The translations under genes and the position numbers were made by a program. From Tetracentron sinense (lineage: Eukaryota > Streptophyta > Magnoliopsida > Trochodendrales > Trochodendraceae): 64,000 nt of DNA. The stretch is from the NCBI GenBank assembly GCA_015143295.1, contig JABCRI010001479.1:1-64000 (forward strand). Reading direction: 5' to 3'. Positions within the stretch are counted from its first letter, which is position 1. Each line of letters opens with the position of its first letter. The notes below the pieces were generated by a model, which made no database searches, was not told the DNA's origin, and saw nothing but the letters and a program-made list of their open reading frames with translations. This document shows positions 4,410 to 60,859 of this stretch, in pieces.

Positions 4410-4877
4410 ATGGATGAGATGCGTGAAGCAGCACTAGCTTATTATGAGGCGGGATCTGAGCAGCTTAAGCAGCTAGCATGGAAATTTTTCCGTTTAATGG
4501 ATATTGATGGAGATGGAAGAATAAGCATATTGGAGTTCGTGGAATTCCTAAAGCAGAGAGGATATGGAGTAAATAATAATAACTTCTTCAAGGAACTAGA
4601 CAGGGACCGTAACGGCTATCTGGATTTCAACGAGGTCCTCGTTTTCTACTACATCGTTAGGGCTAAGAGGCGGTCTTGCAATGGGTGTAAAGCTTTGCTA
4701 AAGGGACTGTATTTTACTTGCATCACTTGCTTCGACTCCTGCCATGAGAGCTACGATCTTTGCTACTCTTGTTATGGCCATGGAAGAAATCCCCATCACC
4801 ACTCCTTGTTCTCGGATAATTACGCACTGCTCATCTCCAAGAAAGGCTCTTCTTCGGCCGCACCGAGGGCATTTACG
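4410..4877 (+). CDS. EF-hand / ZZ zinc-finger protein, copy A, exon 1
   Basis: This exon encodes 156 residues. Two canonical EF-hand loops are visible: residues 31-42 (D-x-D-x-D-G ... E at position 12) and 64-75 (D-x-D-x-N-G ... E). They are followed by a ZZ-like zinc finger with Cys at 90, 93, 104, 107, 118 and 121, an extra Cys at 111 and a His run at 129-131. The EF-hands should bind calcium. ZZ fingers usually bind zinc and contact partner proteins, so a calcium-dependent adaptor is a fair inference but unproven. There is no signal peptide or membrane segment. The start at 4410 was chosen because the MDEMREAA opening is shared by the paralogues. The exon ends at ACG followed by GTACGA, phase 0, as in copies B and E. 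Confidence 0.85.
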
Positions 4878-4999
4878 GTACGAAATACTTTAACGGCATA
4901 TCTCCAATGTTATGTTGAAGTCAATGTTTTTATAAGATTCACTCATCGTCATGGTTCTAAGCCTTCTAACCTTTGTTTTTTTTTTAAATAATAATAGTA

Positions 5000-5480
5000 A
5001 AAATATTAACCTTCGGTTAATTAAGCATAAGCATACTTAAAGGGGCTCTACAAGCCACCACGTGTTCCTTTTAACACACACTTGCCATGGTTACGATTCA
5101 CTCAATCCTTGCGTTCATCCATCTAACCTTAATTGGTTTTAGGAATATATATATATATATAGACCTTAGGTTGATTATGCTTAACCACAATTAAAAGGGC
5201 TCTACAAGCCATCATGTGTCCCTTTTAACACCCACTAACTATGGTTAAGATTCACTCACTGCTAAGGTTCATCTATCTAACCTTTGTTTTTTTTAAAAAA
5301 ATATATTAACCTTAGGTTGATTGTGCTTAACACCTACTGGCTGTGGGTAAGATTCACTCACCCTTATTTTAAAAAAATATTAACCTTAGGCTAATCATCC
5401 ATAATATAATCTTGTTTATTTTTAATGTATAAAAAAATTAATCTTTAAGTTGATTAAGTTTAACCACAATTAAAAAGGGA
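5000..5480. repeat. Tandem copies of a CTCTACAAGCC foldback-type repeat in intron 1 of copy A
   Basis: The segment AGGGGCTCTACAAGCCA, then CTTTTAACAC and GGTTA.GATTCACTCA recurs at about 5040-5110 and 5195-5260, with shorter tails at 5325-5360 and 5395-5475, each separated by TTAACCTTAGGTTGATT. The motifs belong to the foldback MITE family seen at 24070, 35031, 43215 and 56115, here arranged head to tail. Confidence 0.55.
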
Positions 5481-5599
5481 TGAATGATGAATGATGAATG
5501 GGACATAGACATGCCTCATGACTCCATATTGCCTCATGCATAGGAAAGCTCCCTTTTGTCTTAATCATTATTATCATCATCATTATTATTATTTTTATT

Positions 5600-5965
5600 A
5601 TTTAGGTCACACAAAATTGAGAAAATCCTTGGGTAATGGTAAACTCTGTGCGGTCCAACATTATAGAGCCAAGGCCCAGGCCTATTCGAGTCAAATGTGC
5701 TTTGACCTGATCCAATTAAAATTGCACTGCTTAGCTGGGATCAAGCCTGGCTCGATTGTCATACGGGCCTCAAATTTCAGGCCCATAATGGCCAGTGTGA
5801 ATAATTTTGCTGCAAAACTTGGCCCATTTCGGACCCAACCCAATGCCATGGAAAAAGTGAAGCCAAACGGGCCCATAGTTATCCAAGTTAGATTGTTCCT
5901 CCAATTTTCACTGACAGGCCGAAAAACAAAAGACTTCATCACTAACAATTATTTATCTGATGCAG
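5600..5965 (+). other. Conserved 3' part of intron 1 (copy A)
   Basis: The stretch starting at AAAATCCTTGGGTAATGGTA and continuing through TAGCTGGGATCAAGCC and GGCCAGTGTGAATAA up to the exon 2 acceptor has counterparts in copy B (8820-9217), copy D (42225-42966) and copy E (63943 to the window end). It contains no coding sequence and is useful as a marker for where exon 2 should start. Confidence 0.6.
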
Positions 5966-6049
5966 CCAAACACTTCCCAAGTCATGTATCTTCAAAGGCC
6001 GCCAGAGACTTCAACAAAATATTATGTCAGTCCTCAGCCACCTAGAAAG
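5966..6049 (+). CDS. EF-hand / ZZ protein, copy A, exon 2
   Basis: This exon of 28 codons is rich in Pro, Ser and Thr (starts PNTSQV, contains PPETST, ends PPRK). It follows TGATGCAG and ends at AAG before GTGAGT, so both borders are good splice sites and both introns are phase 0. It matches exon 2 of copies B and D. I find no exon 3 between here and the promoter of copy B, so copy A either ends differently, has lost its last exon, or is spliced onto the exons of copy B. Confidence 0.7.
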
Positions 6050-6277
6050 GTGAGTTATTATTTATTTTGTTTTTTTAACAATACAGCCCAATTATAATTG
6101 GGGGGAACCGCGGAAGAATGTTTTTTTTTGCGAGTAAAACCACATGAGAAATTTTTTAGGAATAACCGTTATGTGGCATATTGACTGTTATGTACAAATT
6201 TTAAAAAGTTAAAATTTCTTTCTGACAATAAAACAAAGCTAGAGATTTAGGGATAATGTTTATGACTCTTGATGCCA

Positions 6278-7094
6278 TTCAACCACTAAGTAATTCGGGC
6301 ACCCACCTTTCCACGTTTATTGTTCCTCTCAAAACCAACACTTTCTCAAAATTCTATCTTTAGATTGTGTGGTTGCGACATGTGTTGCTCATTTTTCATG
6401 TAACTTTTAGATTCAATTGAGCCCATAGCATTCTCCTTAAGCGAATTCCTTTGAAAAAAAGTTGTTTGGTTAACCTATTCAAAGGGTAGAAACCACAAAG
6501 AGAGTTAGGAAAAAAAAATTTGAATTTTGCCAGTGGGTCTAGCACTCCTCATTCTCTTAGTTGGTGTTTGGATCAGATTTGTTTCCCGATTTAATCACTT
6601 AAAATCGGTTCTAAGCAATTTTAGACTTGAGAATTCCATTTGGTTCAGTTAGAAAAAATGAATCAATTTTATTAGAATTGATTTCTCAAAAATTAATTTA
6701 TTTTGAATAGAAATAGAGAGTGATTTTGAGAGGGGAAAATTGTTTTTTTCTTTCTTTCTTATAACTATCTAATAATACACAATTATTATATATTTTTTTA
6801 GCCTTAACCGTGGAATCGAATAACAGAGTCGCCTCATTATGGGCACAAAACACTTTTGAGCGGGCCCACAACTCAAACATTTTGTTTTTAATTCATGATG
6901 GGGCAAGTAGGTCAACAACTTGCACCAGGGGTTGGTCCCACTCCTCCACTTATCTTGGTATCCGTAGGAAAAATTCTGAGTGGATCAGTGTGACTACCTA
7001 AAGGGATTGGTCCTCGGCTCTCGATCAGAAAAGAAAAAAACCCACTTGATCATATATATCTCTAGCTATAGCTATATAGTAAGCCATTCCTTGG
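6278..7094 (+). promoter_or_regulatory. Promoter region of copy B, shared with copy C
   Basis: Two blocks match the region upstream of copy C. The distal block at about 6278-6352 (CACCTTTCCACGTTTA then CAACACTTTCTCAA) matches 36293-36360. The proximal block at 7057-7094 (CTCTAGCTATA, TATATAGTAAGCC, TTCCTTG) matches 36430-36462 and includes a TATA-like sequence about 45 bp before the start codon. Sequence between the blocks differs, so an insertion or loss separated them in one copy. Confidence 0.55.
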
Positions 7095-7118: not shown

Positions 7119-7625
7119 ATGGGAGGGAGAGAGAGAGGGATGGATGAGATGCACGAGGCAGCACAAGCTTTTTTTAATGGGGGAAATGAGCAGCTTAAGC
7201 AGCAAGTATGGAGTTTTTTCCGTTGCATGGACAGGGATGGAGATGGAAGAGTAAGCAAACGGTACTTCATGGAATTCCAAAGGCAGAGTGGATATGGAGT
7301 GAATAGTGATAACTGCTTCATGGAACTGGACACAGACCACAACGGCTATCTGGATTTCAATGAAGTCCTCGTTTTCTACTATATTGTTCGAGTGGGGAGG
7401 CGGTCTTGCAATGGGTGTAAAGCTTTGCTGAAGGGACTCTATTTTACTTGCGTCGGTTGCTTCGACTCCGGCTATCAGAGTTATGATCTTTGCTCCACTT
7501 GTTATCGCCAGGGAAGATACCACCACCACCACCACCACCACCACCACCATGCCGTCTTCTTGGATAATCACGCAATGCTCATGTCCAAGAAACATCTTTC
7601 TTCTGCGGGAGGAAGCGCAAATACG
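7119..7625 (+). CDS. EF-hand / ZZ zinc-finger protein, copy B, exon 1
   Basis: This exon encodes 169 residues from the ATG at 7119. An in-frame ATG at 7140 gives the MDEM start seen in copy A, and either may be used. The second EF-hand loop (71-82) is canonical. In the first (38-49) the last ligand position is Tyr instead of Glu, so this hand probably binds calcium poorly. The zinc finger keeps Cys at 97, 100, 111, 114, 125 and 128 but has Gly at 118, where copies A and C have an extra Cys. A run of ten His (135-144, bases 7521-7550) expands the short His cluster of the other copies. The exon ends in ACG before GTACGG, phase 0. With exons 2 and 3 the protein is 224 residues (217 from the second ATG), the only complete gene in the window. 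Confidence 0.88.
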
Positions 7626-9217: not shown

Positions 9218-9283
9218 CGAAACCCTTCCATGGTCATGCATCCTCCATGGCCACATACTTCAACAGTTCATCCACCTAGAAAG
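9218..9283 (+). CDS. EF-hand / ZZ protein, copy B, exon 2
   Basis: This exon of 22 codons follows TTATGCAG, ends at AAG before GTAATT and is open in phase 0. The product is Pro-, His- and Thr-rich and ends HPPRK, like copy A. It is shorter than exon 2 of copies A (28) and D (30). Confidence 0.75.
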
Positions 9284-9978
9284 GTAATTTTTTTTTGGAG
9301 TGTAATTAATTATAATAGAGTGCAAATAATTGGACGAATCGCGTAGAAATTATTTTGTGTGGAACCACGGACGAAATTTTCTATGCGGATCTACATGTGC
9401 TTATCAAAATAGTCTCTTAATTTCATAATTATGATCGTTTAATTGTGATTAATCTTATAAAAAAATTGTGATTATGAATGTTTATAATTCATTTACCATC
9501 TCACAGTTGTCTTACCTTGACATATTCAATTTTTTTATTAGTATCTTTACTATTATAATGGGAGAGGAAGGGGTAGCCTGATTTTTCCAAAAATTCCCAA
9601 ACTATCCTTATATAAAACAAAACTTTGATTTTATGTTTTTCTTTAATTCCTAAACTACCCCTTGCTCATCTGTCTATTTAAAGAACAGAATCACAACCAT
9701 TAGCGATTGAACTCGGGGAGAGTTCAATCGCACCTCTAGGTTAACACGTGTTCCTTTTAACTCCTATTAACTGTGGTTAACTCCTTCCCCTCGCTCTCAC
9801 GTGCATCGCACGTGCCACCCGCTAGTATATATAGAGATATCCTGGTTGGATTCATTTTGGGCCCATAAAAATAAGATTGACCAAATGATTTATTTGGGGC
9901 CCATGAATCAGCCCAAGTGAGTAACGAATATGAAAATGGAGGTATGTCAACCTAGAGTAGGTGAACTAATTCCAGTTA

Positions 9979-10156
9979 CACACCAAGGCTTTGTCCTAGT
10001 GGTAGTGTATTCCCTGTTTAGGGGGGAGGTCCAGGGTTCCATTCCCGAGAGGGTAGGAGTTGTATATACTCTCCACTCGCCCACTAACTCAGAACAAATA
10101 CTGACACCTAACCGGCATTGCGGCCTAAACGTATATCTCGAAACCAAAAAAAAAAA
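9979..10156 (+). mobile_element. tRNA-derived SINE, family 2, copy 1
   Basis: The head has CCTAGTGGTAGTGTATTCCC (A-box-like) and GGTTCCATTCCCGAG (B-box-like), and the tail is poly(A). A perfect 11-bp target duplication, AATTCCAGTTA, flanks it at 9968-9978 and 10157-10167. A second member is at 46614-46790. The perfect duplication suggests a fairly recent insertion into intron 2 of copy B. Confidence 0.9.
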
Positions 10157-10324
10157 AATTCCAGTTAGAGATACATAAAAGCACAATAACTTAAGATGGA
10201 TGAAACCATCGACCTAGAGGAGTGATGAATCCATCTCATTTATTGATAAGTGAGGACTCATTAACCTAGAATAGAGCATGGACCCAACCCACCCAGGAAG
10301 AGTGCCATTCATTTATATATATAT

Positions 10325-10506
10325 ACAAGGTTGGAGCCAGGATTTTCTTGTAGGGGGGCTAACAATGTGGGAATGGGGGTTCGGGTTTGTAGGCTATCTC
10401 GTCTATTTGTAGCCGCCTATGCCCTCTTAAATTAAATAATATAAGAATAAATTTAACTTTTTCTTTTTCCTCAAAAGTTCGGCCCCCGGGCCCTATGTGG
10501 CTCGGC

Positions 10507-10510
<4 letters not shown>
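10325..10510. repeat. Decayed hAT-like repeat with GGAGCCAGGATTTT end
   Basis: The left part GTTGGAGCCAGGATTTTCTTG and the right part CCCTATGTGGCTCGGCCCC resemble the fragment at 3390-3895 and the ends of 23851-26975. Only one clear end is present. Confidence 0.4.

Positions 10511-10554
<44 letters not shown>
10510..10554. repeat. (TA)n microsatellite
   Basis: About 45 bp of uninterrupted TA repeats in intron 2 of copy B. Confidence 0.95.
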
Positions 10555-10557
<3 letters not shown>

Positions 10558-11925
10558 AATGTGTTGTAATATACTTGAGAGTTTCTCTGAAAAATGATCA
10601 AAGTATAGGTCCTACAGGGTTGCAAATATGAGGTACTTCTACCTAAATTATATCATATTTGAGAGTGGTTGTTTTACAAGATGTGGTTTGAGAGTATTAC
10701 TATACATTATTTTTAGAAAATTTTCATCATATAATTGTTCCAAGGGACTGCTTGGATACATGAATGTGTGGGTCACAATGAAGGATAAGGGTGTGTTCTT
10801 TTCGTGAACATGTATCTCTCAAGAAATTGAATTTCCTAAGAGATTCAATTCTTGAGAAATTGAAAGCATGGGAATTCAAAAGTAAATTCCTTCAATTTCT
10901 AGTTCCTTAAGTCTGACCGACATGAGAAATGAACTTTTTTTTTTCGATTTTCATTTTCGGAGCTCCGGTAGGCGCACACACACACATATACTTGATTATT
11001 CTTGAAAATTATTTGTAGATGCAAATATATCATTTTTACTTTATAAACTATATGAAATAATTGATAAAATCATTCATTATTCAAATTTGTAGTCACAACA
11101 AACAAGATGACAATTGATATATTAAATGTTTCCTTCCAAATTAAATTACAAGATCACCCATAATTAACAAACCTTAGAAGAATCTTGCATTTTACAAAGG
11201 AAAATGAAAAAGTATATCCCTCTTAACATGAAAAATGAAACTTTATACAAAAACCGCGCTCTCTATAAACCATAAACCGCATTCTACAAATTTTGAAGCC
11301 ACGCTTCCGAGGTGATTTCACTCTCAAACCTTGAGAGCCAGGTTTGAAAGCAGGAGCGAGTAGCAGGTTGAGAGGTTTGGGTTACTAAGGTTTTATGATT
11401 TCCCACAATCTTTTAAAATTTGTCCATAAATTCATGTCTCAGGGTTGAGGCTGAGACATGAATTTCATATAAGGGTGGTGAATTTGTTTATCATGCCAAA
11501 CTCATTTTTTAGAAAATTGGAGCACCAAACATATGAACATTAGTTATTCTTAGGAATTGATATTTCTCATGCTAATTAAGAAAATCAAATTGGAAAAGTA
11601 AGCAGGTGTTTTGTCTCTATTCCTGAATATATAGCATATGCAGAAGGCTACTGTTCAAAAATAATCCATTGAATGGTCTAAGTAGTCGAATTTTTGTGAG
11701 CTGCATTTCCTAGATTAGAGTTTTTCCTCTCCTTTCCCAGGTGGGCAATGGCGCTAATCTCGGTTCCATTTCATGAATGCAAACGGCCCCTAATGCTGTT
11801 ATCTAAACATTAGTGAAAAGCACAAATTTGCTTGCTTAAATTACCCCCCTTTTTTGTTGAGTTTACCTGTTTAATTTCTTCACTTGATTGATTGATTCTT
11901 GTTGCTTGTATGATTATTCATTCAG
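10555..11925. other. Intron 2 of copy B, remaining part
   Basis: No coding sequence is visible. The segment at 11625-11700 (AGCATATGCAGAAGGCTACT, then AATAATCCATTGAATGG) is the uninterrupted counterpart of 44648-45645 in copy D, where three MITEs have inserted. A GGTTTGGGTTACTAAGG motif near 11376 matches the right end of the MULE-like insert at 53187-53853. Confidence 0.6.
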
Positions 11926-12027
11926 AATTCATGGGAGCAAGCATTAGAGGCATTTGAAGCATTCGAAATGGCCTTAAATTACGCAACTTTCGCATATGAA
12001 GCTGCAACTATGTGTGGCATCTTGTAA
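11926..12027 (+). CDS. EF-hand / ZZ protein, copy B, last exon
   Basis: This exon encodes 33 residues and a TAA stop after the acceptor ATTCATTCAG. The peptide starts NSWEQALEAFEAFEMAL and ends MCGIL. It is Ala/Glu/Phe-rich with helical spacing and a hydrophobic C-terminal half, and is clearly homologous to the last exon of copy D. The tail is not a known motif to me. It may be an amphipathic helix for membrane or partner contact. Confidence 0.8.
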   Translation, partial: NSWEQALEAFEAFEMALNYATFAYEAATMCGIL

Positions 12028-12245
12028 CGCGGATAGCATGGACAAAAAAATTTGCTACAGTGAACTTTTGTTGAAGCTTATGCATTGCAGTAATCAAAGG
12101 AATGGAACCTAAGTTACTGGAACTCTCTCAGACAATACATATAGATCCATCTTATATTTGGTGTTGTTTTGTTTTAATTTGAAAGGGTTTCTAAAATTAG
12201 TTTTGAAAGCTAATTTCTTCATAAATGAAGTGATAATGAGGATCT
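12028..12245 (+). other. 3' UTR-like flank of copy B
   Basis: The sequence from TTGTTGAAGC through ATGCATTGCAGTA, TCAGACAATA and GGGTTTCTAAA.TTAGTTTTG to GATAATGAGGATC is conserved downstream of copy D (46030-46215). Conservation over about 180 bp right after the stop fits a shared 3' UTR and polyadenylation region. Confidence 0.6.
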
Positions 12246-12254
12246 TACTCAACT

Positions 12255-12935
12255 CAACAGGTGGATTTTTGTTCAAAGTGTAGGACTTCCAGCCTTAGCA
12301 ATAAGTGGGCTGTGGGTTTAAATTTCACCAACAAAAGCCATTAGAGGTGCTGGATAGGGTTGATGTTGAGCCGAGTAAAGCTTGATCGAGCTTTTAATGA
12401 GCCGAACTTGAGCCATTCATGAATAGCTTGGTTCGTTAATCAACAGATCTGATGAAGCCTCTTCTCCTGATTTTTATCTATTTGAGAGTTGAGAACACTA
12501 TTTTTTTTTAATGCAGATCAAGCTGGGGAATGGTGTTGGCTCAAACTTTAAATGGCTTGCTTAAGATGACCCCTGCATTTATTCGATTACACGTGCAAGG
12601 GTATATTAGTTGCTTTCTCAAATGAAAATAATATTTTGTACTTAATTTAAATAAATTAAGTACATTATATATATATATATATATAATTGATCCGAGCTTT
12701 TATCGAGTCAAGTATTGGGATGTCCAAGCTCGGCTTGTTAATTAAACGAGCTTGAAAATCAAGCTCAAGCTTGACTTGTTTATTAAATAAATAAGCTTGA
12801 TCAATCTCTTAATGAGCCGAGTTTGAGCTGTTCGCGAGCAGCTTGGTTCATTAATTGCCATAGTGCTGGACCTGAGGTAGCTTAGCCTAATTAGGATTTA
12901 GCCCTGGTGCATATTCATGACAAGCAAGCCTAGAG
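12255..12935. repeat. GAGC-rich insert in the 3' flank of copy B
   Basis: This block is absent at the matching point after copy D, where GATGATGAGAACTGAGAGAG joins directly. It is full of TTGAGCCGAG, GATCGAGCTTTTAATGAGCC and CAAGCTCGGC motifs in both orientations, like 23580-23700 and 59762-59935. This pattern is typical of a decayed non-autonomous DNA transposon, but clean ends are not visible. Confidence 0.45.
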
Positions 12936-13210
12936 CGAAGATATTGGGTTATAAGACCTCAGAGAGCTCCCAGACCTCCATCTTGATGAACTGAGATATG
13001 ACCATACAGCCAAGAGCTCTGAGTTCATTCAAAACACACACGGGAGGAGGGAGCCCACCAAGAGCCTTAAGTTGACACCCGTAATTTGGTGTCCAGCGGG
13101 GAGTTTTGGGGAGGGACTATGTGGATAATTAAAGCAATAAAGAGAACAAAGACACACAAAAAATACAATAGATTTACGTAGTTTGGTGTTGTGCCTAGGT
13201 CCATGGATGA

Positions 13211-13876
13211 GTAGGGCTGTCAATGGGCCAGGCTCGGGCTGGGCCAATTTTATATGGGCTTGATATATGTAGGCTCAAGCCCTACCCATGTTTTACTCGG
13301 GCCGGGCCAAGCCTTGTTATTGATCAGGCTGGAGTGGGCCGGGCTAGCCCACTTATAAATGTTATATACAAGAGTGTATAATAATACTGTTATACTTATA
13401 ATGTTGTACACTGTTTTTTTTAAATGATAACAAAAGTTATTAGAAATCCTTATAAAGAATCATAAAGTCAATACTCAATGGTCTCCCTTGTCTTTGCCTT
13501 CAGTCATTGCCTTGTGGTATGATTGAGTTTACCAAAAAAAAAAATACTCAATGGTCAGAAAGATGATAACAAATGTTACAAATCCTAATATCTTTACAAA
13601 ATTAATAATTAAAAAGTCATTTAGAGAGGTGGGGCTTGGTGGTAACCATAGACATAATAGTAATATTAACCCTTATGAAAATATATATATTTAACATTGT
13701 TGTTAGCTAACATACATCCGGGGCCGGGCTTCAAACAGTCAAGCCCTAGCCTGACCCATATTTATATGAGCCTGAGTTTTTGGAGCCCGACCCTAACCCT
13801 ATGGGCCTTGATAGCAGGCCAAAATCGGGCCGAGCTGGATCGGGCCGGCAGGCCAGCCCAGCCCATCGACACCCCC
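13211..13876. mobile_element. hAT-type MITE
   Basis: The termini GTAGGGCTGTCAATGGG and CCCATCGACACCCCC are inverted repeats of the hAT kind, and the element is flanked by a perfect 8-bp duplication, ATGGATGA, at 13203-13210 and 13877-13884. It is 666 bp long, GGGCC/CCCGG-rich at both ends, AT-rich in the middle, with no coding capacity. Confidence 0.88.
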
Positions 13877-13989
13877 ATGGATGAACCCCCTAGAAATTGG
13901 CTATATTCGGATCCAAGCAATGCTTTGTCTATAGTACTTGTAAACACCCATTTTTGTACCCCTCTTTCACCTCGCTTTTCTTACCCAAG

Positions 13990-15697: not shown

Positions 15698-15719
15698 AAC
15701 AAGAATCACCAGAGAGGAG

Positions 15720-36488: not shown

Positions 36489-36959
36489 ATGAATGAGATA
36501 CGCGAAGCAGCACTAGCTCATTATTATGCCGGGTCTGAAGAGGTTAAGCAGCTAGCAGGGAGTTTTTTCCGTTTCATGGACATTGACGGAGATGGAAGAA
36601 TAAGCGTATGGGAGTTCGAGGAATTCCTAAAGCAGAGAGGATATAGAGTGAATTATAATGACTTCTTCATTGAACTAGACAACGACCGCAACGGCTCTCT
36701 GGATTTCTATGAGGTCCTTGTTCTCTACTACATTGTTAAAACGAAGAGGGGGTCTTGCAGACAATGTAATGCTCTGCTGAGGGGACAGTATGTTACTTGC
36801 GTCACATGCTTCGACTCCTGCAATGAGAGCTACGATCTTTGCTCCACTTGTTCTTATAGCTATGGAAGATCTAACCACAACCACTACTCTTTCTTGGATA
36901 ATTACGCAATGCTCATGACCAAGAAGGGCTCTTCTTCTGCGGCTGCAAGCGCAAATCCG
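36489..36959 (+). CDS. EF-hand / ZZ zinc-finger protein, copy C, exon 1
   Basis: This exon encodes 157 residues from the ATG at 36489 (MNEIREAALAHYYAGS). Both EF-hand loops are canonical (31-42 and 64-75, each with acidic positions 1 and 3 and Glu at 12). The zinc finger keeps Cys at 90, 93, 104, 107, 111, 118 and 121, with His at 130 and 132. The exon ends at CCG before GTACGT, phase 0. No exon 2 is found before the truncated copy D, because intron 1 is filled by a 2.6-kb hAT element. C may therefore use the exons of D. Joined to D it would make about 299 residues with two zinc fingers; skipping the partial D exon gives about 220 residues, close to copy B. Confidence 0.85.
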
Positions 36960-40426: not shown

Positions 40427-40663
40427 GGAATTCACCCAAATTATCTACCAGGGAGGCCATCTTGCAATGGGTGTAGAACTTTGTTGAATGGACTGTATTT
40501 TACTTGCGTCACATGTTTCAACTCTTGCGATGCGAGCTACAATCTTTGCTCCACTTGTTATGGCAAAGGAAGATATTTCCACCACCACACCTTCTTCTTG
40601 GACAATTACGCAATGCTCGTGAACAAGAAACTCTCTTCTTCGACAACAACAAGCACATATATG
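40427..40663 (+). CDS. EF-hand / ZZ protein, copy D, zinc-finger-only exon
   Basis: This segment of 79 codons follows a good acceptor (TTTGTGCAG) and ends at ATG before GTATGA, both phase 0. It encodes the complete zinc finger (CNGC, CVTCFNSC, CSTC and a His cluster) and the conserved FLDNYAML stretch, but the EF-hands are missing and there is no initiator ATG. The first 12 codons (GIHPNYLPGRPS) replace the region before the first Cys in the other copies. It is either a 5'-truncated relic or, since it is open and in phase with copy C, an internal exon of a C-D gene. Confidence 0.65.
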
Positions 40664-42966: not shown

Positions 42967-43056
42967 CCAAGCAGTTCCCAGGTCGTGTCTTTTCCAAGGC
43001 CAGAGACTTCAACAACAGTTTATGTTTATGGAGGCTATCATCAGCCACCAAATACG
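42967..43056 (+). CDS. EF-hand / ZZ protein, copy D, exon 2
   Basis: This exon of 30 codons (starts PSSSQVVSFPRPETSTTV, ends PPNT) follows TGATGCAG and ends at ACG before GTGAGT, phase 0 on both sides. It is homologous to exon 2 of copy A and slightly longer. It is open, which argues against long-standing loss of function. Confidence 0.72.
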
Positions 43057-45405: not shown

Positions 45406-45423
45406 TTCTTCAAAAGAGTCATA

Positions 45424-45732: not shown

Positions 45733-45834
45733 AATAAATGGGAGAAAGCAGTTAGAGCATTTGAAGCATTGGAAGTGGCGCTGGGTATTGGAGTTAGCGC
45801 TTATTGTGCTGCAGCAGTGTGTAGCATCATGTAA
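45733..45834 (+). CDS. EF-hand / ZZ protein, copy D, last exon
   Basis: This exon has 33 codons and a TAA stop after the acceptor CCTTTCAG. The peptide starts NKWEKAVRAFEALEVAL and ends VCSIM, homologous to the copy B tail in length and in the pattern of hydrophobic and charged residues. The conserved length and open frame suggest that the tail is under selection. Confidence 0.75.
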   Translation, partial: NKWEKAVRAFEALEVALGIGVSAYCAAAVCSIM

Positions 45835-51340: not shown

Positions 51341-51677
51341 AGTGTATCCCTTATTTGGGTTATCAGGGTTCAAATCCCTTTAGGGGAGGAGGTTGGGAAG
51401 TCATCTTGAAACTAGGTTCGAATGCTAGGCAACTAACAACAAATACTCGGGTATTGTTATTTATTGTCACCCTGATGCAACATGGCCAAGCACCTAATGC
51501 AACATGCTGGCAACCTGATGCATCACGGACGAGTACCCTGATGCAATATGGTCGAGTGCCTGATGCAACATGTTGAGCACCCTAATGCAACATGTTGGGC
51601 TGTGATTTCTGCCTAGTGCCCTAAATGTCATAGTGAAGAAATTCATCCAAGTGCGGGTAAACGGTATGAATAACTAT

Positions 51678-54600
51678 TGTAAGCACCCAATTTTTACACC
51701 CCTTTTCTAACCATGGTTAAAGCCTTTTAACCATGGTTATCCTCAACCAAGTCCCTTCAACCCTAGGTTAACCTTAAACCCTAGACCTAACCCAAGGTAA
51801 ATCCCTAGCCAACCTTAGGACAAGCCCTAGTCAAACCATAGGCCTAACCCTAGTCAAATCCTAGGCCTTACCCTAGGTAAATCCTAACCCTAGGAAGACC
51901 CCTAGTCAAACCTAGGCCTAACCCTAGTTAAACCCTAACCTTAGGTGAACCCCTAGTTGACCCTAGGTCCATCCCTAGGATTAAAACCTTAGTCAAACCC
52001 TTAGCAAACCCTATGCCCAAAACCCTAAGCCCTTAGGTTTCAAGCCCAGGCGAAAGCCCTCAAAACCTCGGCTTGGGCCCAAGCCCAGGCCCAAAAATTC
52101 AAATCTCCAGCCTCGTACCGCGTACACTGCCAGGGCCAGACCCCTATTGGTTAAAACCCGGTATTGGCGGTAGATAATCTACTGCCATTACCATTTTGCA
52201 CTGTTTTGGTAATAGCAGTAGTTATTTTACCGCCAATACCTGATTTTGTGTTCAGCAGCACAACCACCACCTCAGGGGTCAGGCATGCTTCTGGCAGCCC
52301 CTCTCCGACCTCCTGTGCCTCTGTCTACCCTGGTACTAATACCAGGGGTGTCTCCAAACCCTTCTTCTATAAATTCACACCCCCACAGCCTTCCAAAGGA
52401 CTAAAGAACTCCCATACCTGAACCCCTGTTCAAACTCCCAAGACCAAAGCCCTTGCAAGCTTCTGAGAATCCTCTCAGCCACTCCAGAGCACTCCAGGGA
52501 CCATCCAGCTCCGTCCTCAGCATCTGCACAGCACCACCACTTCGCTCCACCACCTCTGCCAACTACCACCACCGCTAGAGGAATATAGCAGCAGGGTAGG
52601 GCCTACCCCTACCCCATTTATTTTCTGTTTTACACTCTTGTGAGCCCCTGGAAGATCCAGGAGACTTTCTCTTCGTTATTTAGCAAAAATCCATAGTAAA
52701 GGGGCCCCCCTCACCTTCATCATAGGTGTACTCTACGGGTAGAGGCACCTCTCCGACCAGCCTTGAGGCATTTGGGGGTCCCACAATCCATGAGGGAACC
52801 CCTGGATCCATCCTAGCATTATCCTGAAGGGCAAAAAGCAATTTCTGGAAAAATCCAGGAATGACGGTAAACTTAGTACCGCTATTCCTAGCATTTTCTG
52901 TTTGAACCCCTGTGGACCCCACCTGAGTTAGCCCTGGTCCATTCCAGGGCATGGGTTAGACTTCTAAGACCCTCTTTTGCTTAAACCCTGGTCTTCTAAG
53001 TTCAACACATCTCTTTAACCATGGTTAAAACTCACAAAAATGCAAACTGTGTAGAATGGCGGTAGATGTTGTGTTATGTAATAGGACTTCAACCTACTGT
53101 GGGGCCCACTCCAGACTACTCTCAGGGCCTACATCAGGCCCATGGTCTTCCCTGGACTTCCTTCTTCATCTTTGAGGGTTCAGAACTAAGAAACCGAAGC
53201 GTGGAGCGGGAGCGGGAGCGGGAGCGAGAGCATCAAATTTCAATTTAAGATATGGTCGAAAGCGTCTCTAGAGCGTCAATATATTAACATATATTAATCT
53301 TAAGAGTTTAAAGTCTTTAATTACAGTTAGATATTTTTCTTAAAAATAAGCTTAGATCATTGAATTAATAAATACATCCTTTGAACTTCTATCTTAAAAA
53401 CTATGGTTCTTAAGGGTTAATTAATAATTCTTAACCTCAGTTCAAGTTAATAGGGAATAGGGACATGGTTTGATTGTGGGTGCGATTGAACTCTCCAGTA
53501 ATTGGATTGAGATTGGGTGCGATTGAACTCTCCCCGAGTTCAATCGTACGTGATTGGCTGTGATTTCATTTCAAAGAGACAAAAGCCTCTACTGACACAA
53601 GGTTTCTGTACTACTGAGTACTGACACAGGTTTCTTACACAAGTATGACACAAGTTTCTTACACAAGTATTCTTCTCTACTGACATAAACCACCTTCGAA
53701 TAAAGATTTTAAAAATGAAAAAGTTAAAAGACTCAAAAAGCGCCGCTCTATTGTTTCAGAAATCGCACTCTCTACGTGGATTCGCTCTCAAACTGTGAAA
53801 GCAAGGTTTGAGAGCGGGAGCGGGTGGGTAAACACACGGTTTGGGTTACTAAGGTTTAGAACCTCTTGGATCCACTCCTAGCTTAAACCCCAGACTTGCA
53901 AAGACCCTCTGAAAATGTTCTGTAATGGCAGGAATCCTATTATTGTAATTTATTGATTTTCTATTCTTATGGGCTTTTGTAAGGGCTCAGGCTTGGTAGG
54001 AGGCCATTCTAGTTCCTGCCTAGCCCCTTGGGCACATCTCAGACCATCTCAGGCCTTAACCATGGGTTAATCCAATCCTAGTTAAGTTTTAACTATGGTT
54101 AGCTGATCTAACCTTGAGGAAAAAATTCCAGAAATTCTATAAAAATCCTAAATAATTTGAAATGTTAGAAATGATCAAAATCAGACTTTGTAACCAGCCT
54201 AACCGTGGTTAAATGAGCCTAACCATGGTTAAATCTTTCCTCAACCATGGTTAAGCCCATTTAACCTTGGAAAAATCCATAAAATTGTCAAATAACATTA
54301 AGAGACCACAAAACTATTCTTGGATCTTGCCAATCATGGTTAGCAACCCTAACCATGGCTAGGCCACCCCTTAACTCCGGTTAAACCCTTTTGGCCTACC
54401 GGGCCCAACCTAACCATGGTTAGACCACCCCTTAACTTCAGTCAAACCCTTTTGACCTACCAGGCCCAACCCTAAGCCTACCGGGCTTACCTTTAGCTTA
54501 CTGGGCTAGACCTTGACCTCTGGATCTAAACTTTGGCCTACCAGGCCCAAACCGGCCTATCGGGCCCAATCCTTTATTCTATTGGACTAAACCCTAGCCT

Positions 54601-55148
54601 TCAAGTTTATCTCTTGGCCTACCAGACCCAACTCTAAACCCACCGGGCTTACCCTTAGCCTTCGAGCTCCACCCTTGGCCTACCGGGCCCAATCCAACAA
54701 AACCAAGCATTTGACCAACCCGGTCAACTTAACCCTAGCCCCCCGGGTTAGACCCTAAGCCACCCTCGATGCACACACAACACTCCCCTTAACCTTGACA
54801 CGGGCTCATGTGCCAAAACTACGCTCGGTCTGATCTCACCCTAATGTGAGTACATAGGCAACCCAACCCGGGTTCGACCCTAGTTAACTTTTTTCCTTAT
54901 TAGATTAGTATAAACTAAAACTAAAGCATTTAAACGATAATTAACATTAAATTGGCTTAAACCTAGTAAGTAGGAAACCATTGTAAATGGAAGTCTTGAG
55001 GTGCCTAACACCTTCCCCGAGTTTAATCGAACCTCTTACCTAGAACTCTAAAGCAGACCAAGACCTTATCCATAAACCCAGGGACTTATCCCTTCTGAAT
55101 GAATAGGTGGCGACTCCAAAATCCCAGTGAGTAAAATCCGTGCTCACA
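51678..55148 (-). mobile_element. Solo LTR Z (Ty3/gypsy-like, reverse) with a nested insert
   Basis: On the minus strand it runs TGTGAGCACGGATTTTACTC to GGGTGCTTACA. The 5-bp duplication ACTAT (51673-51677 and 55149-55153) is exact. It shares several blocks with solo LTR Y, for example the one ending GTTAGGCACC. Without the insert at 53187-53853 it is about 2.8 kb. CCCTAG- and CCTACCGGGCCC-type short repeats fill 51700-52080 and 54360-54700. No internal domain is present, so it is a fossil solo LTR. Confidence 0.88.
53187..53853. mobile_element. MULE-like insert in solo LTR Z
   Basis: This 667-bp segment interrupts the LTR and is flanked by GTTCAGAAC (53178-53186) and GTTTAGAAC (53854-53862), a 9-bp duplication with one mismatch. 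The ends, CTAAGAAACC and, reversed, CTTAGTAACCCAAACC, are weakly inverted. It contains a GCGGGA tandem run (53208-53227) and a decayed piece of the CGATTGAACTCTCC MITE family (53480-53570). Confidence 0.6.
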
Positions 55149-55153
55149 ACTAT

Positions 55154-55177
55154 GACTCTCTTAAGGTAGTCAAATGT

Positions 55178-55215
<38 letters not shown>

Positions 55216-56114
55216 AAGATTCTCACTGTCCCTATCTACTATCTTTGAAATTTTTTTTTTATAAAAAACTCAAGGTTAGATTCTTTAACTTAAGGGTAAA
55301 AGTGTTTTAACCACAATTAAAGGGAGTTAAACAAGACACGTGTTGACTAGCGGGTGCGATTGAATCTCCAGAGTTCAAATCTGAACCCCGTTGTCTCACA
55401 TGTGCTAGGACAGGCACTCACGTCATGAGATTGTCTCTAGCAAATAGCAGAAAATTGGTCTTGGGCATCCACACATCATCCGACATATGGCGTTAAAAAG
55501 GGGTCACATACGGTTACTTCGAGAAGGGTGTTTTCATTTTCTCCTCATGTTTTTGACTTCTCGCCACTTAATATCTCTCTCCCTTTTTATCGCCACATGT
55601 AAAAAGATGTGTGGATGCCAGAGACCAATTTTCTCGCATCTGCAAGAGGCAATCCCATGCCGGCACCCACAGTTTTGTGGGTTCCATATGTAGGATGACA
55701 TGGGTTGGATTGTGCTAGACAAATTCGGGTTTAATGAAAATATAGACCAAACCCGACATTTTATAAACGGGTTGAAAATGCAACCCAAACCAGCCCAACA
55801 GAAGCCCTTGACATGCCCACCCAATTCAACTAAAATTAATAAGGAGAAAAATATATTTACACCCCCTGAGGTTTGACGACAATACACATAGGTCCCTTAG
55901 TTTTCAAAAAATACATTAGGTACCCTTTCTTTTCAAAATAATGACACTTACACCCCTTCTATCAGTAACAGACATGCTGATGTCATGAAATAAACTTTAT
56001 AAAATTTCAAAACTACCCCTTGAATCATTTTGGGAAAAATACACTTACACCCCCTGAGGTTTGATGAAAATACATATAGACCCCCGAGTTTTGACAAAAA
56101 TACACATAGACCCC
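55154..56114. other. Unassigned sequence
   Basis: No supported gene. 55860-56115 repeats the segment AATACA(C/T)ATAG(G/A)CCC.C.GAGTTTTGA / ACACTTACACCCC three or four times, a low-complexity repeat. A CGATTGAATCTCCAGAGTTC piece at about 55360 belongs to a MITE family seen above. Confidence 0.4.
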
Positions 56115-56965
56115 CTCAGTTTTCAGAAAATTTAATCTTAGAAATTAGTGAATTTTAACTAGGGTTTAAAAGAAATTAATAATTTTTTCTAAAAACCAAT
56201 GAGAGGTGGGCGAACTCTAAGGGGAGATGAATCTTAACCATAGGTAAGGGGTGTCAAAAGAGACACATGACAACCTCAAGGGCATAATCGGACTTCAATT
56301 GTGGTTAAGATTCACCCACTTAGAGCATTCCTAGCAGCCTCACCAAATTTTACTCAGCATAATAGCCAAAACTCACTTTTTTTTCTATTTTAACTATCCA
56401 CTTTTTAAAACACTCCAAACAGCCTCACCAATTTAACAAAAAAAAAAAAGGAGAGAGAAACATTGTTTTATTATTTGTGTCAGAAAACAAAAAAGGAAAG
56501 GAGAGAGAAACATTATTTTATTTATTTATGTGACAATAAAGGAAGGAAGAGAGAAACTTTATTTTATTATTTGTGTGGGACCACAAAAAGGAAGGGAGAG
56601 ATGAAGATTTGGTTTGGTACTTGGTGAGTACTGTACACTCACCAAACCAAAATGGTTAATTTAAAGAGGGTGCTGGAGGCCCCTTTTTACAAATTTTAGT
56701 GTTTTGTCTCACCAAGATAACTTTTTAGTTATTTTGGTGAGGCTGCTAGGAATGCTCTTATTCTTGGTTTTTAGAGAAAAAAAAATCATTTTTTTAAAAC
56801 TCTGGTTAAAATTCACTAACTCTTGAGGTTAAATCTTTTTTTTATTTTTTTTTATAAAAACCAAGGATAAGTGAGTGAATCCTAGGGGTGGGTGAATCTT
56901 AATCACGGTTAAAGAGTGTTAAAAGGGACACATGACGACCTCAGTGGCGTAACCGGACTCCAGCT
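56115..56965. repeat. Foldback MITE cluster
   Basis: Right-arm sequence of one foldback MITE (GATGAATCTTAACCATAGG, AAAAGAGACACATGACAACC) is followed directly by the left arm of another (GTGGTTAAGATTCACCCAC), a Tourist-like insert, and the rest of the second element, ending GACACATGACGACCTCAGTG and GTAACCGGACTCC at about 56960. Confidence 0.65.
56323..56757. mobile_element. Tourist-like (PIF/Harbinger) MITE nested in a foldback MITE
   Basis: The ends GAGCATTCCTAGCAGCCTC and GAGGCTGCTAGGAATGCTC are perfect inverted repeats, and the flanks are TTA at 56320-56322 and 56758-56760, the usual 3-bp duplication. It is 435 bp with three rounds of GGAGAGAGAAACATT..TTTATT inside. Related foldback copies with an uninterrupted arm confirm the insertion. 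Confidence 0.92.
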
Positions 56966-58464
56966 CTCTAGCAAAATGCTCTAAAAGAAGAATGTCTCGT
57001 CAAGGCCCCGTCCACCTTGTTTCTTTGCTATATTCAAAATATCTCTAAAGTTTTTTGGTTCTTAAATTGTTCATATATCATATTTCTATAAACGTGTCTT
57101 ATAATATTTTTTTATCCAAAATGTCTCTCAAGTTTCTATACTTAAAATGTTTCTTAAATTTTTTTAAAAAATGTCTTCACTAGAGTCCCTCTTCTCAGAC
57201 TCTCTCCCCTTCCTCTATCACATGCATTCGCACATGCTGTCCATTAGTAAATGAAGCCAATTGATGGACCCAAAACGTAAACACCTGGGTTGATGTTTAT
57301 TGAATGACGAACCCAATTGATGGACCCAAAACGTACACACCTGGGTTGAAGTTTATGGAATCAGTAATCTAAATGAAATGGGGTATATATTTGCTGCATT
57401 CCCAAGGACAAGCTTGAAAGATGATAATAGTTACAAATATTCGAGCGAATTTGATAGTAACTTTAATAGGTGATAAATTAAAAGAAAATTTATTAAATTG
57501 ATTTAGGGACATTTTATTCCGACCAATGACAACACCAGATGGGTAGTGAATTTGTGTAGATTGAAACCTTTAAAAAGGTCGGGGAATTTCCAATATTATT
57601 TGGATGTAGATGTAGATGTAGATGTAGATGGTAATGATAAATTTGATAGCACACAATTTGATCCGTAGCATGACTTCTAATTACGGAACGAGAAAATTGG
57701 ATTCGTGTCGCTATGGTGCTGTTTTTTTTTTGCTTGGTCCTAATCATTTATCTACGTAAGTTAGGGATTAGGGGGTTAGTAGGGTCAGCACTCATGGTGG
57801 GCATCAACAGTCATACCAAGACTTGAACACAGGTGACACCTCCCCAAATGGAGATACACAACCACTGGGACAAGCCCATGGTGTCGGTGCTTATATTTAT
57901 GATGATAATGATTAGAATACCATTTTGAGGAGTGGTGCATTCGAAAGGGGTGGGACTTAGCATCTAAGGGGCCAATCAAGATCATATAATGTGATTTGAT
58001 GATCATTATCATTTGATATACTATTTTAGTATAAGGGGAGTTCATGGGCCGTTCTTGGTCCATAACCTGAATATTGGGCTAGAGTCTGGCCCATAATTAA
58101 TTGAGATCTTTGATAGAATGTAATTCCTAGTTCAATGGGCTGAACTGAAAAGAAATCACCAATGTTAAAATCTCACTGCACCAACATTACTGAATTAAAC
58201 CAACATTAACATATATGTTTTCTATCTGCATTTGTTCATCAAAATATTCCAATCTCCTTCTTTCTACATTGCAATTTTTTTAAAAGAATGGTTGACTACT
58301 CCAACTCCGCAATGGCTACACGATTTAATTTAAATCGTTACAAAGTAATTATGACAAAAATATGATCGGTTTTAGTTTGTTAATACAAGAACTCCATCGA
58401 TCAATGACAAAAGCAATCAAAGTAGATGATGCTGCTATATTTGGAGAAGCCGAAAGTTTTCTGA
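56966..58464. other. Unassigned sequence
   Basis: No supported gene. The GATGTA hexamer repeats about four times at 57604-57629. A 40-bp segment (GATGGACCCAAAACGTA, CACCTGGGTTGA) is repeated at 57263-57300 and 57314-57350. Confidence 0.45.
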
Positions 58465-59346
58465 TCGCATCAGCTAGAGAAAAGCTTGTATTGCATATAT
58501 CAAAACTAACATCTGGGTATTAAGGAATATTAACCAATACAAGATCAATTATGGTGTGTAACTCACTTGAATTGTTTGGGTATGATCATTTCCCTTGCAT
58601 GTTTCGCACACGAAAAAGAGACCTATACCATTCCATCAAACTTATTCTTTGACATGTGATGAAGAATAGAATTACCAGAACGGAGTCATATTGAGGACCA
58701 TTTCAAGAATACGAGTGTGTGATGGGAAATGGTCTTCTATGTCAAATCAATCCAGAAACACTCCTCCCCCTCAAAATGAATCCAATTGAGACAACCACTC
58801 AATTTCAGCCTGCCTTCAACTATATGTAGAAATTTATGGTGAGATTAAGACTTAATGTGTCCGCTGTATGGGTACTATTTGTCGGTTTCCAATATGAACT
58901 AAAAAGGGCTTCGATCATAGGGCTGGCCCAACACTTATATCAATGGGCCCTGTGGGCCAGGACACTAACATACAAACCCTAACCCGACAAATAAGGGAAT
59001 CTAAAATATTATATGATCTAAGGATCAAGTAAATAAAATTTTCTATTTAAACATATCCAATCTATTTTGTCAAGAGCATTCTCATATTTTATATTGCTCA
59101 AATATAGATCAAAATATGAAGAACGTAATATCATAAATCACATATTATGAAATAACATGAGATCAAGAATGATACACTGCACAAAGTTTCCCTAGTGTTA
59201 AATTTCCTATCAATGGCACACAAGATCTCCTTTGTTGTTCACGGGCTTCTGAAGAATGAGAGAGCTCTTAACTTCTTTAAGCTTTTCTTTAGGATTTCTT
59301 TAATCGAATCTTGATTCAAGAAGTAGATAGCATCTAAGTCTTGATC
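58465..59346. repeat. Upstream duplicated block, copy R3
   Basis: It matches 29010-29912 and lies about 1 kb before copy E. No conserved open frame is seen, so I treat it as duplicated intergenic DNA. Confidence 0.65.
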
Positions 59347-59690
59347 AGACATGACCCTCAGCGTAATACTTTGACTTTATCCATATTGGCTCAGGAGGGG
59401 TTCCTTGTGAACTAATTGGAACTGCTCTGGCATCTAAGTGGCTTGATGACACTTTCAATGAAGGCGAGGCATTTGCCTCGGCTTGTTAATATGTGAAACT
59501 CGCCCGCTTTTATTCTGAGTGTATGTTCTGGTGGGATTTGCCACTTGATGGAATTGTCTGTCCCATAGTTGAATGAGGGTGGCCTTGCCCCAACATGCGC
59601 GAATCTTGATCTGGGTGGTAATTATGCTTTTCTCTTGCTTGTCTGCATGGTGAATCTTAAACAGAAATAATTATGTTAATGTATATTAAA
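59347..59690. other. GC-richer unassigned block, possible gene or element fragment
   Basis: This block starts exactly where homology with R2 stops and has a less AT-biased composition. The minus strand has an open stretch of roughly 40 codons around 59430-59560, but no domain is recognised. An A-rich tail at about 59700 could mark the end of an inserted retro-element. Confidence 0.35.
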
Positions 59691-59761
59691 TATATTTTAC
59701 CAAAAAAAAGGTATACTAAATATATAATATAAATTTAATTTTTAAAGGGTATTATTATAAA

Positions 59762-59935
59762 ATTAATCGAGCCGAGTCGAGCTGAGCCACCTATTGTTCA
59801 AGCTCGGCTCGTTTATTTTTTGAGCTCATTTTTAAGGCTCAGCTCGGCTCGGCTCAACGAGCCCAAAGTAAAAACTCAAGCTCAGTTTATTTCGAGTCGA
59901 GCCAAGCTGGCCCGGCTCATTGACACCCCGACTTG
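59762..59935. repeat. GAGC/GCTC-rich repeat
   Basis: Dense GAGCCGAGTCGAGCTGAGCC and GCTCAGCTCGGCTCGGCTC motifs resemble 12360-12860 and 23580-23700. Probably one end or the whole of a decayed hAT-like element (right end CATTGACACCCC). Confidence 0.5.
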
Positions 59936-60203
59936 ATATCTCTTTCTCTATCGCTTGTTGTGGTCCATGTGGGTCCGCCCTTAATTGCAGTCAACCCTAT
60001 TTGCATGGAAACATATCGTCAGTGTTCTTCTCGACCAGCGTTTTTGAAGGTCAGGATTTCTCTAATGATTATAACTGTTAAATCCGTACAAACCAATTGA
60101 TCCTAACCTTCCAACACTCATGGCCACGAACCGAACCCAGGGAAGAGCATTGACGATAAGCTTCCCTATTTGCACGTACCTAAGCGCGTAACGCGGACTT
60201 GGA

Positions 60204-60282
60204 AAGGTCGTGAGGGTGGCATTTTCCACAGATTACTATCCCGCTTAGCTTCCACGCGTCTGACTTGAATGCCAAGTATAAG
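60204..60282 (+). promoter_or_regulatory. Promoter of copy E, shared with copy A
   Basis: AAGGTCGTGAGGGTGGC, ATTTTCCACAG and TTACTATCCC match the copy A promoter. A TATAAG sequence at 60277-60282 is further from the ATG than in the other copies. Confidence 0.45.
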
Positions 60283-60395
60283 ATGTTTTGTCTAGTACTA
60301 AAATTAACTCTATATCAAAGCTGCCGAGAAGTTCGTACATCATAAAGCAGTCTAGATTTCGAGGAGGTCCTAACTTTCTACAAAGGGAGCTAGAG

Positions 60396-60859
60396 ATGAA
60401 GGAGATGCGCGAAGCAGCACGAGCTTACTATGAAGCGGGGTCTGACCAGCTTAAGAAGCTAGCACGTGAATTTTTCAATTGCATGGACATGGAAAAATTA
60501 GCATTTCGGAGTTCATTGATTTTCTAAAGCACAGAGGATATGGAGAGAATTACTTTAAGTGCTTCAAGGAACTAGATGCGAACCGCAACGGCTCTCTGGA
60601 TTTCTATGAGGTCCTCGTTTTCTATTACATTGTTAGGGTGAAGAGGCAATTTTGCAATGGGTGTAATGCTTTGCTGAAGGGACTGTATTTTAGTTGCGTC
60701 GCTTGCTTCAACTCCTGCCATCATCAGAGCTTCGATCTCTGCAACTCTTGTTATGGTCGTAGAAGAAAAGACGACGACCACACCTTCTTCTTGGATGATT
60801 ACGCAATGCTGATCATGTCCAAGAAACGCTCTTCTTCGGCGCCTGCGAGCTCATATACG
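60396..60859 (+). pseudogene. EF-hand / ZZ zinc-finger protein, copy E, exon 1, frameshifted
   Basis: The first 32 codons (MKEMREAARAYYEAGS onward) are intact. Compared with copy A, ten bases of the first EF-hand loop are missing near 60490 (ATGGACAT is followed directly by GGAAAAATT), which shifts the frame. The rest, in the new frame, still encodes the second EF-hand (loop D-x-N-x-N-G..E, with Asn at position 3), all zinc-finger Cys (CNGC, CVACFNSC, CNSC) and the FLDDYAML stretch, and ends at ACG before GTACGA. The downstream part is otherwise clean, so the loss is probably recent. Intron 1 continues to the window edge, and exon 2 should lie just beyond it. Confidence 0.85.

What the first reader, a model, noticed from the sequence alone, without database searches (positions are those of the whole stretch)
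4410..60859. Tandem family of EF-hand plus ZZ-finger proteins with a conserved novel tail
Five pieces of one gene family lie on the same strand. The architecture is two EF-hands, a ZZ-like zinc finger, a Pro/Ser/Thr linker exon and a 33-residue helical tail. I do not know a named plant family with this exact order. EF-hands bind calcium and ZZ fingers bind zinc and partner proteins, so a calcium-gated adaptor is plausible. The tail keeps its length and pattern between copies B and D, which suggests a function.
Basis: partly seen in the sequence, partly recalled or inferred. Interest (0 to 1): 0.75.

Follow-up and report, generated by a model that had tools for sequence, protein, structure and literature searches.

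The report
Prenylated calcium- and zinc-binding plant genes
A plant genome carries two clusters of fast-evolving, partly decayed genes whose proteins join a calcium-binding domain and a zinc finger to a tail that ends in a lipid-attachment signal, so they probably act as membrane-anchored calcium-responsive adaptors.

Summary
Five pieces of one EF-hand–EF-hand–ZZ-like family lie on the + strand, and the three-exon model (exon 1; Pro/Ser/Thr-rich exon 2; 33-residue exon 3) is supported by conserved splice sites and in-frame indels. In the window only copy B has all three exons intact. A lacks exon 3, C lacks exons 2 and 3 of its own, the fourth piece is ZZ-only, and D is frameshifted in both haplotypes.

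All 7 of 7 distinct complete exon-3 copies found end C-x-I-[M/L]-stop (five CSIM, one CNIM, one CGIL). Three of them lie in a second, diverged cluster on C16, where the rest of the tail differs in sequence and length.

Best reading: a calcium sensor/adaptor tethered to membrane by farnesyl (CSIM) or geranylgeranyl (CGIL). Nothing here shows expression, prenylation or partners. dN/dS among the C20-cluster copies is 0.55-0.97 (weak recent constraint) and 0.32-0.59 between clusters. The architecture combines known modules (EF-EF-ZZ order recalled from dystrophin; a prenyl anchor as in CaM53).

The parts
4410..4877 (+). Copy A, exon 1: EF-hand 1, EF-hand 2, ZZ-like finger; donor ACG|GTACG at a codon boundary; intact in both haplotypes
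5966..6049 (+). Copy A, exon 2 (PNTSQVMYLQRPPETSTKYYVSPQPPRK), 84 nt, phase 0; no exon 3 found before B
7140..7625 (+). Copy B, exon 1 (EF-EF-ZZ with a His run); EF loop 1 degenerate at position 12 in this haplotype only
9218..9283 (+). Copy B, exon 2 (RNPSMVMHPPWPHTSTVHPPRK), 66 nt, phase 0
11926..12027 (+). Copy B, exon 3: 33-residue tail NSWEQALEAFEAFEMALNYATFAYEAATMCGIL plus TAA; CaaX box CGIL
36489..36959 (+). Copy C, exon 1 (EF-EF-ZZ), intact in both haplotypes; no exon 2 or 3 of its own found before Cf
40427..40663 (+). Cf: ZZ-only piece, 79 open codons between a possible acceptor (GTGCAG) and a possible donor (GTATGA); either a decayed copy or an extra ZZ exon of C. Borders are read by eye
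42967..43056 (+). Cf exon 2 (PSSSQVVSFPRPETSTTVYVYGGYHQPPNT), 90 nt, phase 0; 84 nt in the other haplotype
45733..45834 (+). Cf exon 3: NKWEKAVRAFEALEVALGIGVSAYCAAAVCSIM plus TAA; CaaX box CSIM; lies in a stretch of about 16 kb with no long counterpart on C20
60396..60856 (+). Copy D, exon 1, frameshifted inside EF loop 1 in both haplotypes (pseudogene); its exon 2 lies just outside the window (C749:64334-64411)

Best explanation
This is one of two tandem clusters in this plant genome of a gene family encoding small proteins (180 to 228 residues where the exons can be joined on paper). The order is a Ca2+-binding EF-hand pair, a ZZ-like zinc finger, usually a short Pro/Ser/Thr linker, and a tail exon that ends in a CaaX box. 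Most likely mechanism: the CaaX cysteine is farnesylated (CSIM, CNIM) or geranylgeranylated (CGIL), which together with the rest of the tail (in Cf, E and T also a second cysteine five residues upstream that could be S-acylated) tethers the protein to a membrane. Ca2+ binding to the EF pair changes how the neighbouring ZZ finger presents its partner-binding face. The protein would thus be a membrane-anchored, Ca2+-responsive adaptor. Shown by sequence: domain order, EF loops, zinc-ligand pattern, exon borders, conserved CaaX ends. Inferred: splicing in vivo, prenylation, membrane location, Ca2+ gating, partner binding. In the window B is the only complete gene; the array is under birth-and-death turnover.
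For: EF-hand Pfam models pass their cut-offs in the EF-bearing window pieces. Exon 2 has phase-0 AG...GT borders and a length that is a multiple of three (36 to 90 nt) in 7 of 9 exon-2 copies measured (A, B, Cf749, Cf20, D, E, s1; E uses a different acceptor); of the other two, F20a fits with a donor five bases further on and F20b does not fit. Seven of seven distinct complete exon-3 copies (B, Cf, E, T, and C16 copies s1, s2, s3) end C-x-I-[M/L]-stop, and all three stop codons are used. In a scan of 448,014 codons (six frames of the C749, C20 and four C16 stretches) CSIM-stop occurs six times, all at exon-3 sites (five distinct copies, E in both haplotypes). An nhmmer model of exon 3 with its flanks, built only from C20/C749, finds the three C16 tails downstream of their exon 1 (E=3.8e-10, 3.8e-8, 1.1e-5). 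Between clusters dN/dS is 0.32-0.59, below 1 in the three pairs tested (p=2.4e-7, 3.3e-6, 9.3e-7).
Against: No transcript, protein or lipid evidence. Within the C20/C749 cluster dN/dS is 0.55-0.97 and not significantly below 1 for B-C and C-F; haplotypes differ by 15 nonsynonymous and 1 synonymous changes over A, B and C, and s1-s3 and s2-s3 ratios are 1.00 and 0.92. Many copies are broken (D, E, s4, the F allele on C749, the F-like copy on C532) or have no exon 3 that could be found (A, C, D, F). ZZ scores are below Pfam's gathering score. The AlphaFold model of exon 1 is poor (mean pLDDT 49, ZZ part under 40). Tail-exon dN/dS within the C20 cluster is 0.55-0.80, and about 2 for E-T on 9 changes. 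The s1 match to the exon-3 model lies mostly in the sequence before the exon.
Confidence: 0.68

Rival explanations
1. The window copies are mostly a dying array: transposon-disturbed, neutrally drifting remains of a family whose working members are on C16 (and perhaps B).
For: D and E are broken in both haplotypes; the F allele on C749 and the F-like copy on C532 carry stops; no exon 3 was found for A, C, D or F; dN/dS is near 1 for B-C and C-F; about 16 kb of C749 with the Cf exon 3 is absent from C20.
Against: A, B, C and F keep intact exon 1 frames on C20; B is complete in both haplotypes; exon 2 length changes are in frame in most copies; A against B, F and C leans below 1 (p=0.029, 0.032, 0.051).
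Confidence: 0.4
2. Soluble and membrane forms: copies without their own exon 3 (A, C, D, F) either end in an intron and make soluble EF-ZZ proteins, or splice onto the next copy's tail exon (A to B exon 3, C to the Cf exons, D to the E or T exon 3). The borders are phase 0, so such joins stay in frame.
For: Order along the array is A1 A2 B1 B2 B3, C1 Cf Cf2 Cf3, D1 D2 E1 E2 E3 T3, F1 F2; borders are phase 0; Cf has a possible acceptor and an open frame in both haplotypes.
Against: Partial duplication or deletion explains missing exons without function; no transcripts are available; on C20 the C group has no exon 3 of its own; D is a pseudogene.
Confidence: 0.15
3. ZZ as a degron or peptide reader: the finger works like the p62 or KCMF1 ZZ domain and brings N-degron proteins to a membrane in a Ca2+-dependent way.
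For: Best PDB sequence matches of the ZZ stretch are p62/SQSTM1 and KCMF1 ZZ domains (E 0.077-0.79); the YDLC motif is shared.
Against: The E-values are not significant; the first acidic residue of the p62 pocket (recalled) is Asn in A and B and varies among copies; no binding data.
Confidence: 0.08

Closest known systems
Prenylated plant calmodulins CaM53 (petunia) and CaM61 (rice)
   Same: EF-hand calcium sensor with a C-terminal CaaX box; for CaM53 the prenylation state decides between plasma membrane and nucleus (passages of PMC12609287); CaM61 has a basic C-terminal domain and a CaaL motif (abstract of PMC3886798 in the listing)
   Different: Those are calmodulins with a basic extension; that they have no ZZ finger is recalled. 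Here two EF-hands, a ZZ-like finger, a P/S/T linker and a tail that is not basic
Dystrophin/utrophin/dystrobrevin EF-EF-ZZ region (recalled)
   Same: Order EF-hand, EF-hand, ZZ next to each other in a membrane-linked adaptor
   Different: Dystrophin EF-hands are of the EF-hand_2/EF-hand_3 type (recalled), not listed here up to E=1; here canonical Ca2+ loops, a small protein, and a CaaX tail
HIPPs, heavy-metal-associated isoprenylated plant proteins (recalled)
   Same: Small plant metal-binding proteins, multigene, with C-terminal CaaX
   Different: HIPPs carry an HMA domain; none is listed for the exon 1 proteins
CML calmodulin-like proteins
   Same: Plant EF-hand sensors; best PDB hits of the EF part are calmodulin-like
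   Different: CaM/CML in rice were taken as having no functional domain other than EF-hands (abstract of PMC1797041 in the listing); a ZZ-like finger is present here
p62/SQSTM1 and KCMF1 ZZ domains
   Same: Nearest ZZ domains by sequence in the PDB
   Different: No EF-hands or CaaX in those proteins (recalled); weak E-values

Membership tests
EF-hand calcium-binding proteins | EF-hand pair with canonical loop ligands | tested here: met
   EF-hand_7 51.6 bits in A (cut-off 30), EF-hand_1 46.7 (25.4); loops read. Not met at loop 1 of B on C749; D broken.
ZZ-type zinc finger | Pfam ZZ (PF00569) over gathering score | tested here: not met
   20.4 bits against 21.4 (B), 16.6 (A), 16.4 (Cf), not listed for C and D; ZZ_ADA2 at most 24.1 against 27.5; none of six genome-wide PF00569 hits is in this family. 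Hence 'ZZ-like'.
ZZ-type zinc finger | C-x2-C ... C-x2-C ... DLC-x2-C ... H ligand pattern | tested here: met
   Invariant C90 C93 C104 C107 C118 C121 H131 across the 5 window pieces; the pattern as definition is recalled.
CaaX (type I) prenylation substrates | Cysteine fourth from the C-terminus with permissive aaX | tested here: met
   CGIL (B), CSIM (Cf, E, T, s1, s3), CNIM (s2) in 7 of 7 distinct complete exon-3 copies. The interrupted C749 allele of T is not counted.
CaaX (type I) prenylation substrates | Lipid actually attached | not testable with these tools
   Needs an in vitro prenyltransferase assay or mass spectrometry.
Dystrophin family EF-EF-ZZ | EF-hand_2 and EF-hand_3 type domains (recalled) | tested here: not met
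   Neither is listed up to E=1 for 5 of 5 window pieces (HMMER's filters drop most matches above about 0.1).
CML | No recognisable domain besides EF-hands | tested here: not met
   A ZZ-like finger follows the EF pair.
HIPP | HMA domain (recalled) | tested here: not met
   No HMA family is listed up to E=1 for 5 of 5 window pieces.

The most novel reading that the evidence does not exclude
The cluster is a modular array in which several EF-EF-ZZ cassettes (A, C, F and formerly D) share a few lipid-anchor exons through phase-0 splicing. One locus would then make soluble and membrane-bound Ca2+ sensors, including a double-ZZ form from C plus Cf, and haplotypes would differ in which anchors (CSIM, CGIL or none) they carry. 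Prenyl choice (farnesyl against geranylgeranyl) would be diversified by turnover of tail exons.
Probability: 0.12. Interest if true: 0.8.

Novelty: new variant of a known kind. Interest (0 to 1): 0.5.

Why it matters
If right, plants have a class of calcium sensor that puts a Ca2+ switch, a zinc-dependent partner-binding finger and a lipid anchor on one small protein. That would widen prenylated calcium signalling beyond CaM53-type calmodulins. The conserved CaaX end gives a sharp, cheap test (cysteine-to-serine version, prenyltransferase mutants). Gene models that stop at exon 1 would miss the feature that best explains the protein.

Tried and rejected
Structure: AlphaFold on the five window exon-1 pieces gave mean pLDDT 49 with the ZZ part under 40; no fold search was run because the model is too poor. 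Pfam on ten other window ORFs (of 88 listed) found only a hAT transposase part and a sub-threshold BED finger, so no linked partner gene is proposed. A tail search of the whole genome with one tail protein found only C20/C749 copies. The C16 tails s1 and s3 were found with a CaaX pattern, s2 by reading around a weak HMM hit; all three were then checked by nhmmer with a model that did not contain them. A diverged exon 3 of A, C, D or F was looked for with a protein HMM (--max) and nhmmer (--max) and not found in the DNA held (for F only to C20:14735000). A conserved stretch before exon 2 (e.g. A 5582-5843) was set aside as a further exon: similarity is readable in more than one frame, as expected of a recently duplicated intron. 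Literature: ten searches. Among the papers listed (one search lists 10 of 14, one search lists 15 of 117) no title or abstract start describes a plant EF-hand plus ZZ plus CaaX protein. The library lacks most subscription journals and other plant proteomes could not be searched, so the family may well be in databases under a general EF-hand name.
Full report
What the window is. The 64-kb window is the start of contig C749 (92 kb) of a 1.16-Gb genome. The main collinear blocks of C749 align at 91-99% identity to C20:14.66-14.72 Mb (blocks over 1 kb only), with the same gene order, so it is taken as an alternative haplotype.

The family. Exon 1 of copy A encodes two EF-hands and a ZZ-like finger. 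Whole-genome searches with A and with a C16 copy (counts are lower bounds by the tool's own statement) place the family in two clusters. One is C20 with its alternative contigs C749 and C532: units A, B, C, Cf, D, E, F. The other is C16: s1 at 26.005 Mb, s2 at 26.834 Mb, s3 at 26.741 Mb, s4 at 26.810 Mb. One search also lists two weak hits (C4, C10; E about 1e-4) that cover only the EF part. Intact exon-1 frames: A, B, C (both haplotypes), F (on C20), s1, s2, s3. Broken: D (frameshift, both haplotypes), E (stop, both haplotypes), s4, the F allele on C749 and the F-like copy on C532. Cf has only the ZZ part.

Exons 2 and 3. Comparison of the downstream DNA of the copies gave a P/S/T-rich exon 2 and a 33-residue exon 3. 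Exon 1 has a GT donor at a codon boundary in 10 of 10 sequences measured; for the seven C20/C749 sequences the script looked only at codon boundaries, for the three C16 sequences it did not. Exon 2 has phase-0 borders and a length that is a multiple of three in 7 of 9 sequences measured (A, B, Cf749, Cf20, D, E, s1). The others are two F exon-2 copies: F20a fits with a donor five bases further on, F20b does not fit. The Cf haplotypes differ by 6 nt in exon 2. C16 copy s1 has its own exon 2, PNASTTQTTTSRQISPVQ; none was found for s2 or s3. Exon 3 was found for B, Cf, E and an orphan T on C20. It is 33 residues in each except E on C749, which has 30 (33 on C20). On C749 the T exon is interrupted: similarity to C20 stops inside it at 71971.

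The CaaX end. B ends CGIL; Cf, E and T end CSIM. A CaaX pattern search downstream of the four C16 exons gave two hits, in s1 and s3, both CSIM; s2, ending CNIM, was recognised by reading the region around a weak HMM hit. Because the search used a CaaX pattern, homology was checked without it: an nhmmer model of exon 3 with flanks, built from six C20/C749 sequences, finds the same three C16 places (s3 E=3.8e-10, s2 3.8e-8, s1 1.1e-5). These matches include the sequence before the acceptor, and for s1 mostly that. Thus 7 of 7 distinct complete exon-3 copies end C-x-I-[M/L]-stop, with TAA, TGA and TAG stops, while tail length is 30-33 residues on C20/C749 and 26, 34 and 55 on C16. CSIM-stop occurs six times in 448,014 codons of all six frames of the C749, C20 and C16 DNA scanned (C532 not included), all at exon-3 sites; five distinct copies, E twice. 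The general pattern used for searching occurs 39 times in the same DNA, so a single general CaaX hit would not have been convincing. Cf, E and T have another cysteine five residues before the CaaX cysteine, which could be S-acylated (inference).

Selection. Nei-Gojobori ratios on exon 1 (Fisher tests on rounded counts): A against B, C and F 0.55-0.61 (p=0.029, 0.051, 0.032 for the three pairs tested); B-C 0.83-0.97, B-F 0.82-0.89 and C-F 0.89-0.90 (B-C p=1.0 and 0.57, C-F p=0.66); C20 cluster against C16 0.32-0.59 (p=2.4e-7, 3.3e-6, 9.3e-7 in three pairs tested); s1-s2 0.40 (p=0.0005), s1-s3 and s2-s3 1.00 and 0.92. Haplotypes differ by 15 nonsynonymous and 1 synonymous changes in A, B and C together (p=0.22 against neutrality). 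So the family was constrained between the clusters, and recent duplicates evolve fast or drift. The pairs are not independent.

Function. EF loops are canonical in most intact copies, a zinc-ligand pattern is invariant in the five window pieces, and the tail ends in CaaX. The mean hydropathy of the tail before the CaaX is 0.02 (B) and 0.64-0.80 (Cf, E, T), and -0.12 to 0.20 on C16, so only part of the tails is clearly apolar. By established knowledge (recalled) X=M favours farnesyl and X=L geranylgeranyl. The review PMC12609287 (passages; section 3.1 in full) calls CSIM, in another plant protein, predicted to direct farnesylation, and reports that the prenylation state of petunia CaM53 changes its place between plasma membrane and nucleus. 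I therefore take these proteins as membrane-anchored Ca2+-responsive adaptors. Splicing, lipid attachment, location and partner binding are inferred.

Known or new. EF-EF-ZZ order is recalled from dystrophin-family proteins, but their EF types are not listed here. Prenylated EF-hand sensors are known (CaM53). CMLs are excluded by the extra domain, HIPPs by the missing HMA. Ten searches of open-licence papers listed no title or abstract start describing this combination; that is weak evidence, since the family is likely present and generally annotated in other plants, which could not be searched here. I class it as a new variant of a known kind.

Noticed in passing
window 32077-34166 (+): hAT transposase remnant: Dimer_Tnp_hAT (E=6.5e-34) at 33600-34166 and a sub-threshold BED finger at 32077-32712, between copies B and C.
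   Followed up: partly
window about 42731-59182: About 16 kb of C749 has no block over 1 kb on the fetched part of C20 (the Cf exon 2 at its edge is on C20). Parts of it resemble the region downstream of B (9977-29909), so a segmental duplication was probably lost from or gained by one haplotype. It holds the Cf exon 3.
   Followed up: partly
window 17936-21692: Two roughly 1.4-kb copies (89% identical) rich in short repeats such as GAGCTACGTTGTCAGTGCC.
   Followed up: no
window 61446-61877: GGT-rich minisatellite of about 430 bp some 600 bp downstream of copy D exon 1.
   Followed up: no
C749:71904-71971: The orphan tail exon T, complete on C20 (about 14716726-14716827), is broken on C749, where similarity to C20 stops inside the exon.
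   Followed up: partly
window 7140-7625, B exon 1: The two haplotypes of B differ by nine nonsynonymous and one synonymous change, including loss of the position-12 glutamate in EF loop 1 on C749 only.
   Followed up: yes
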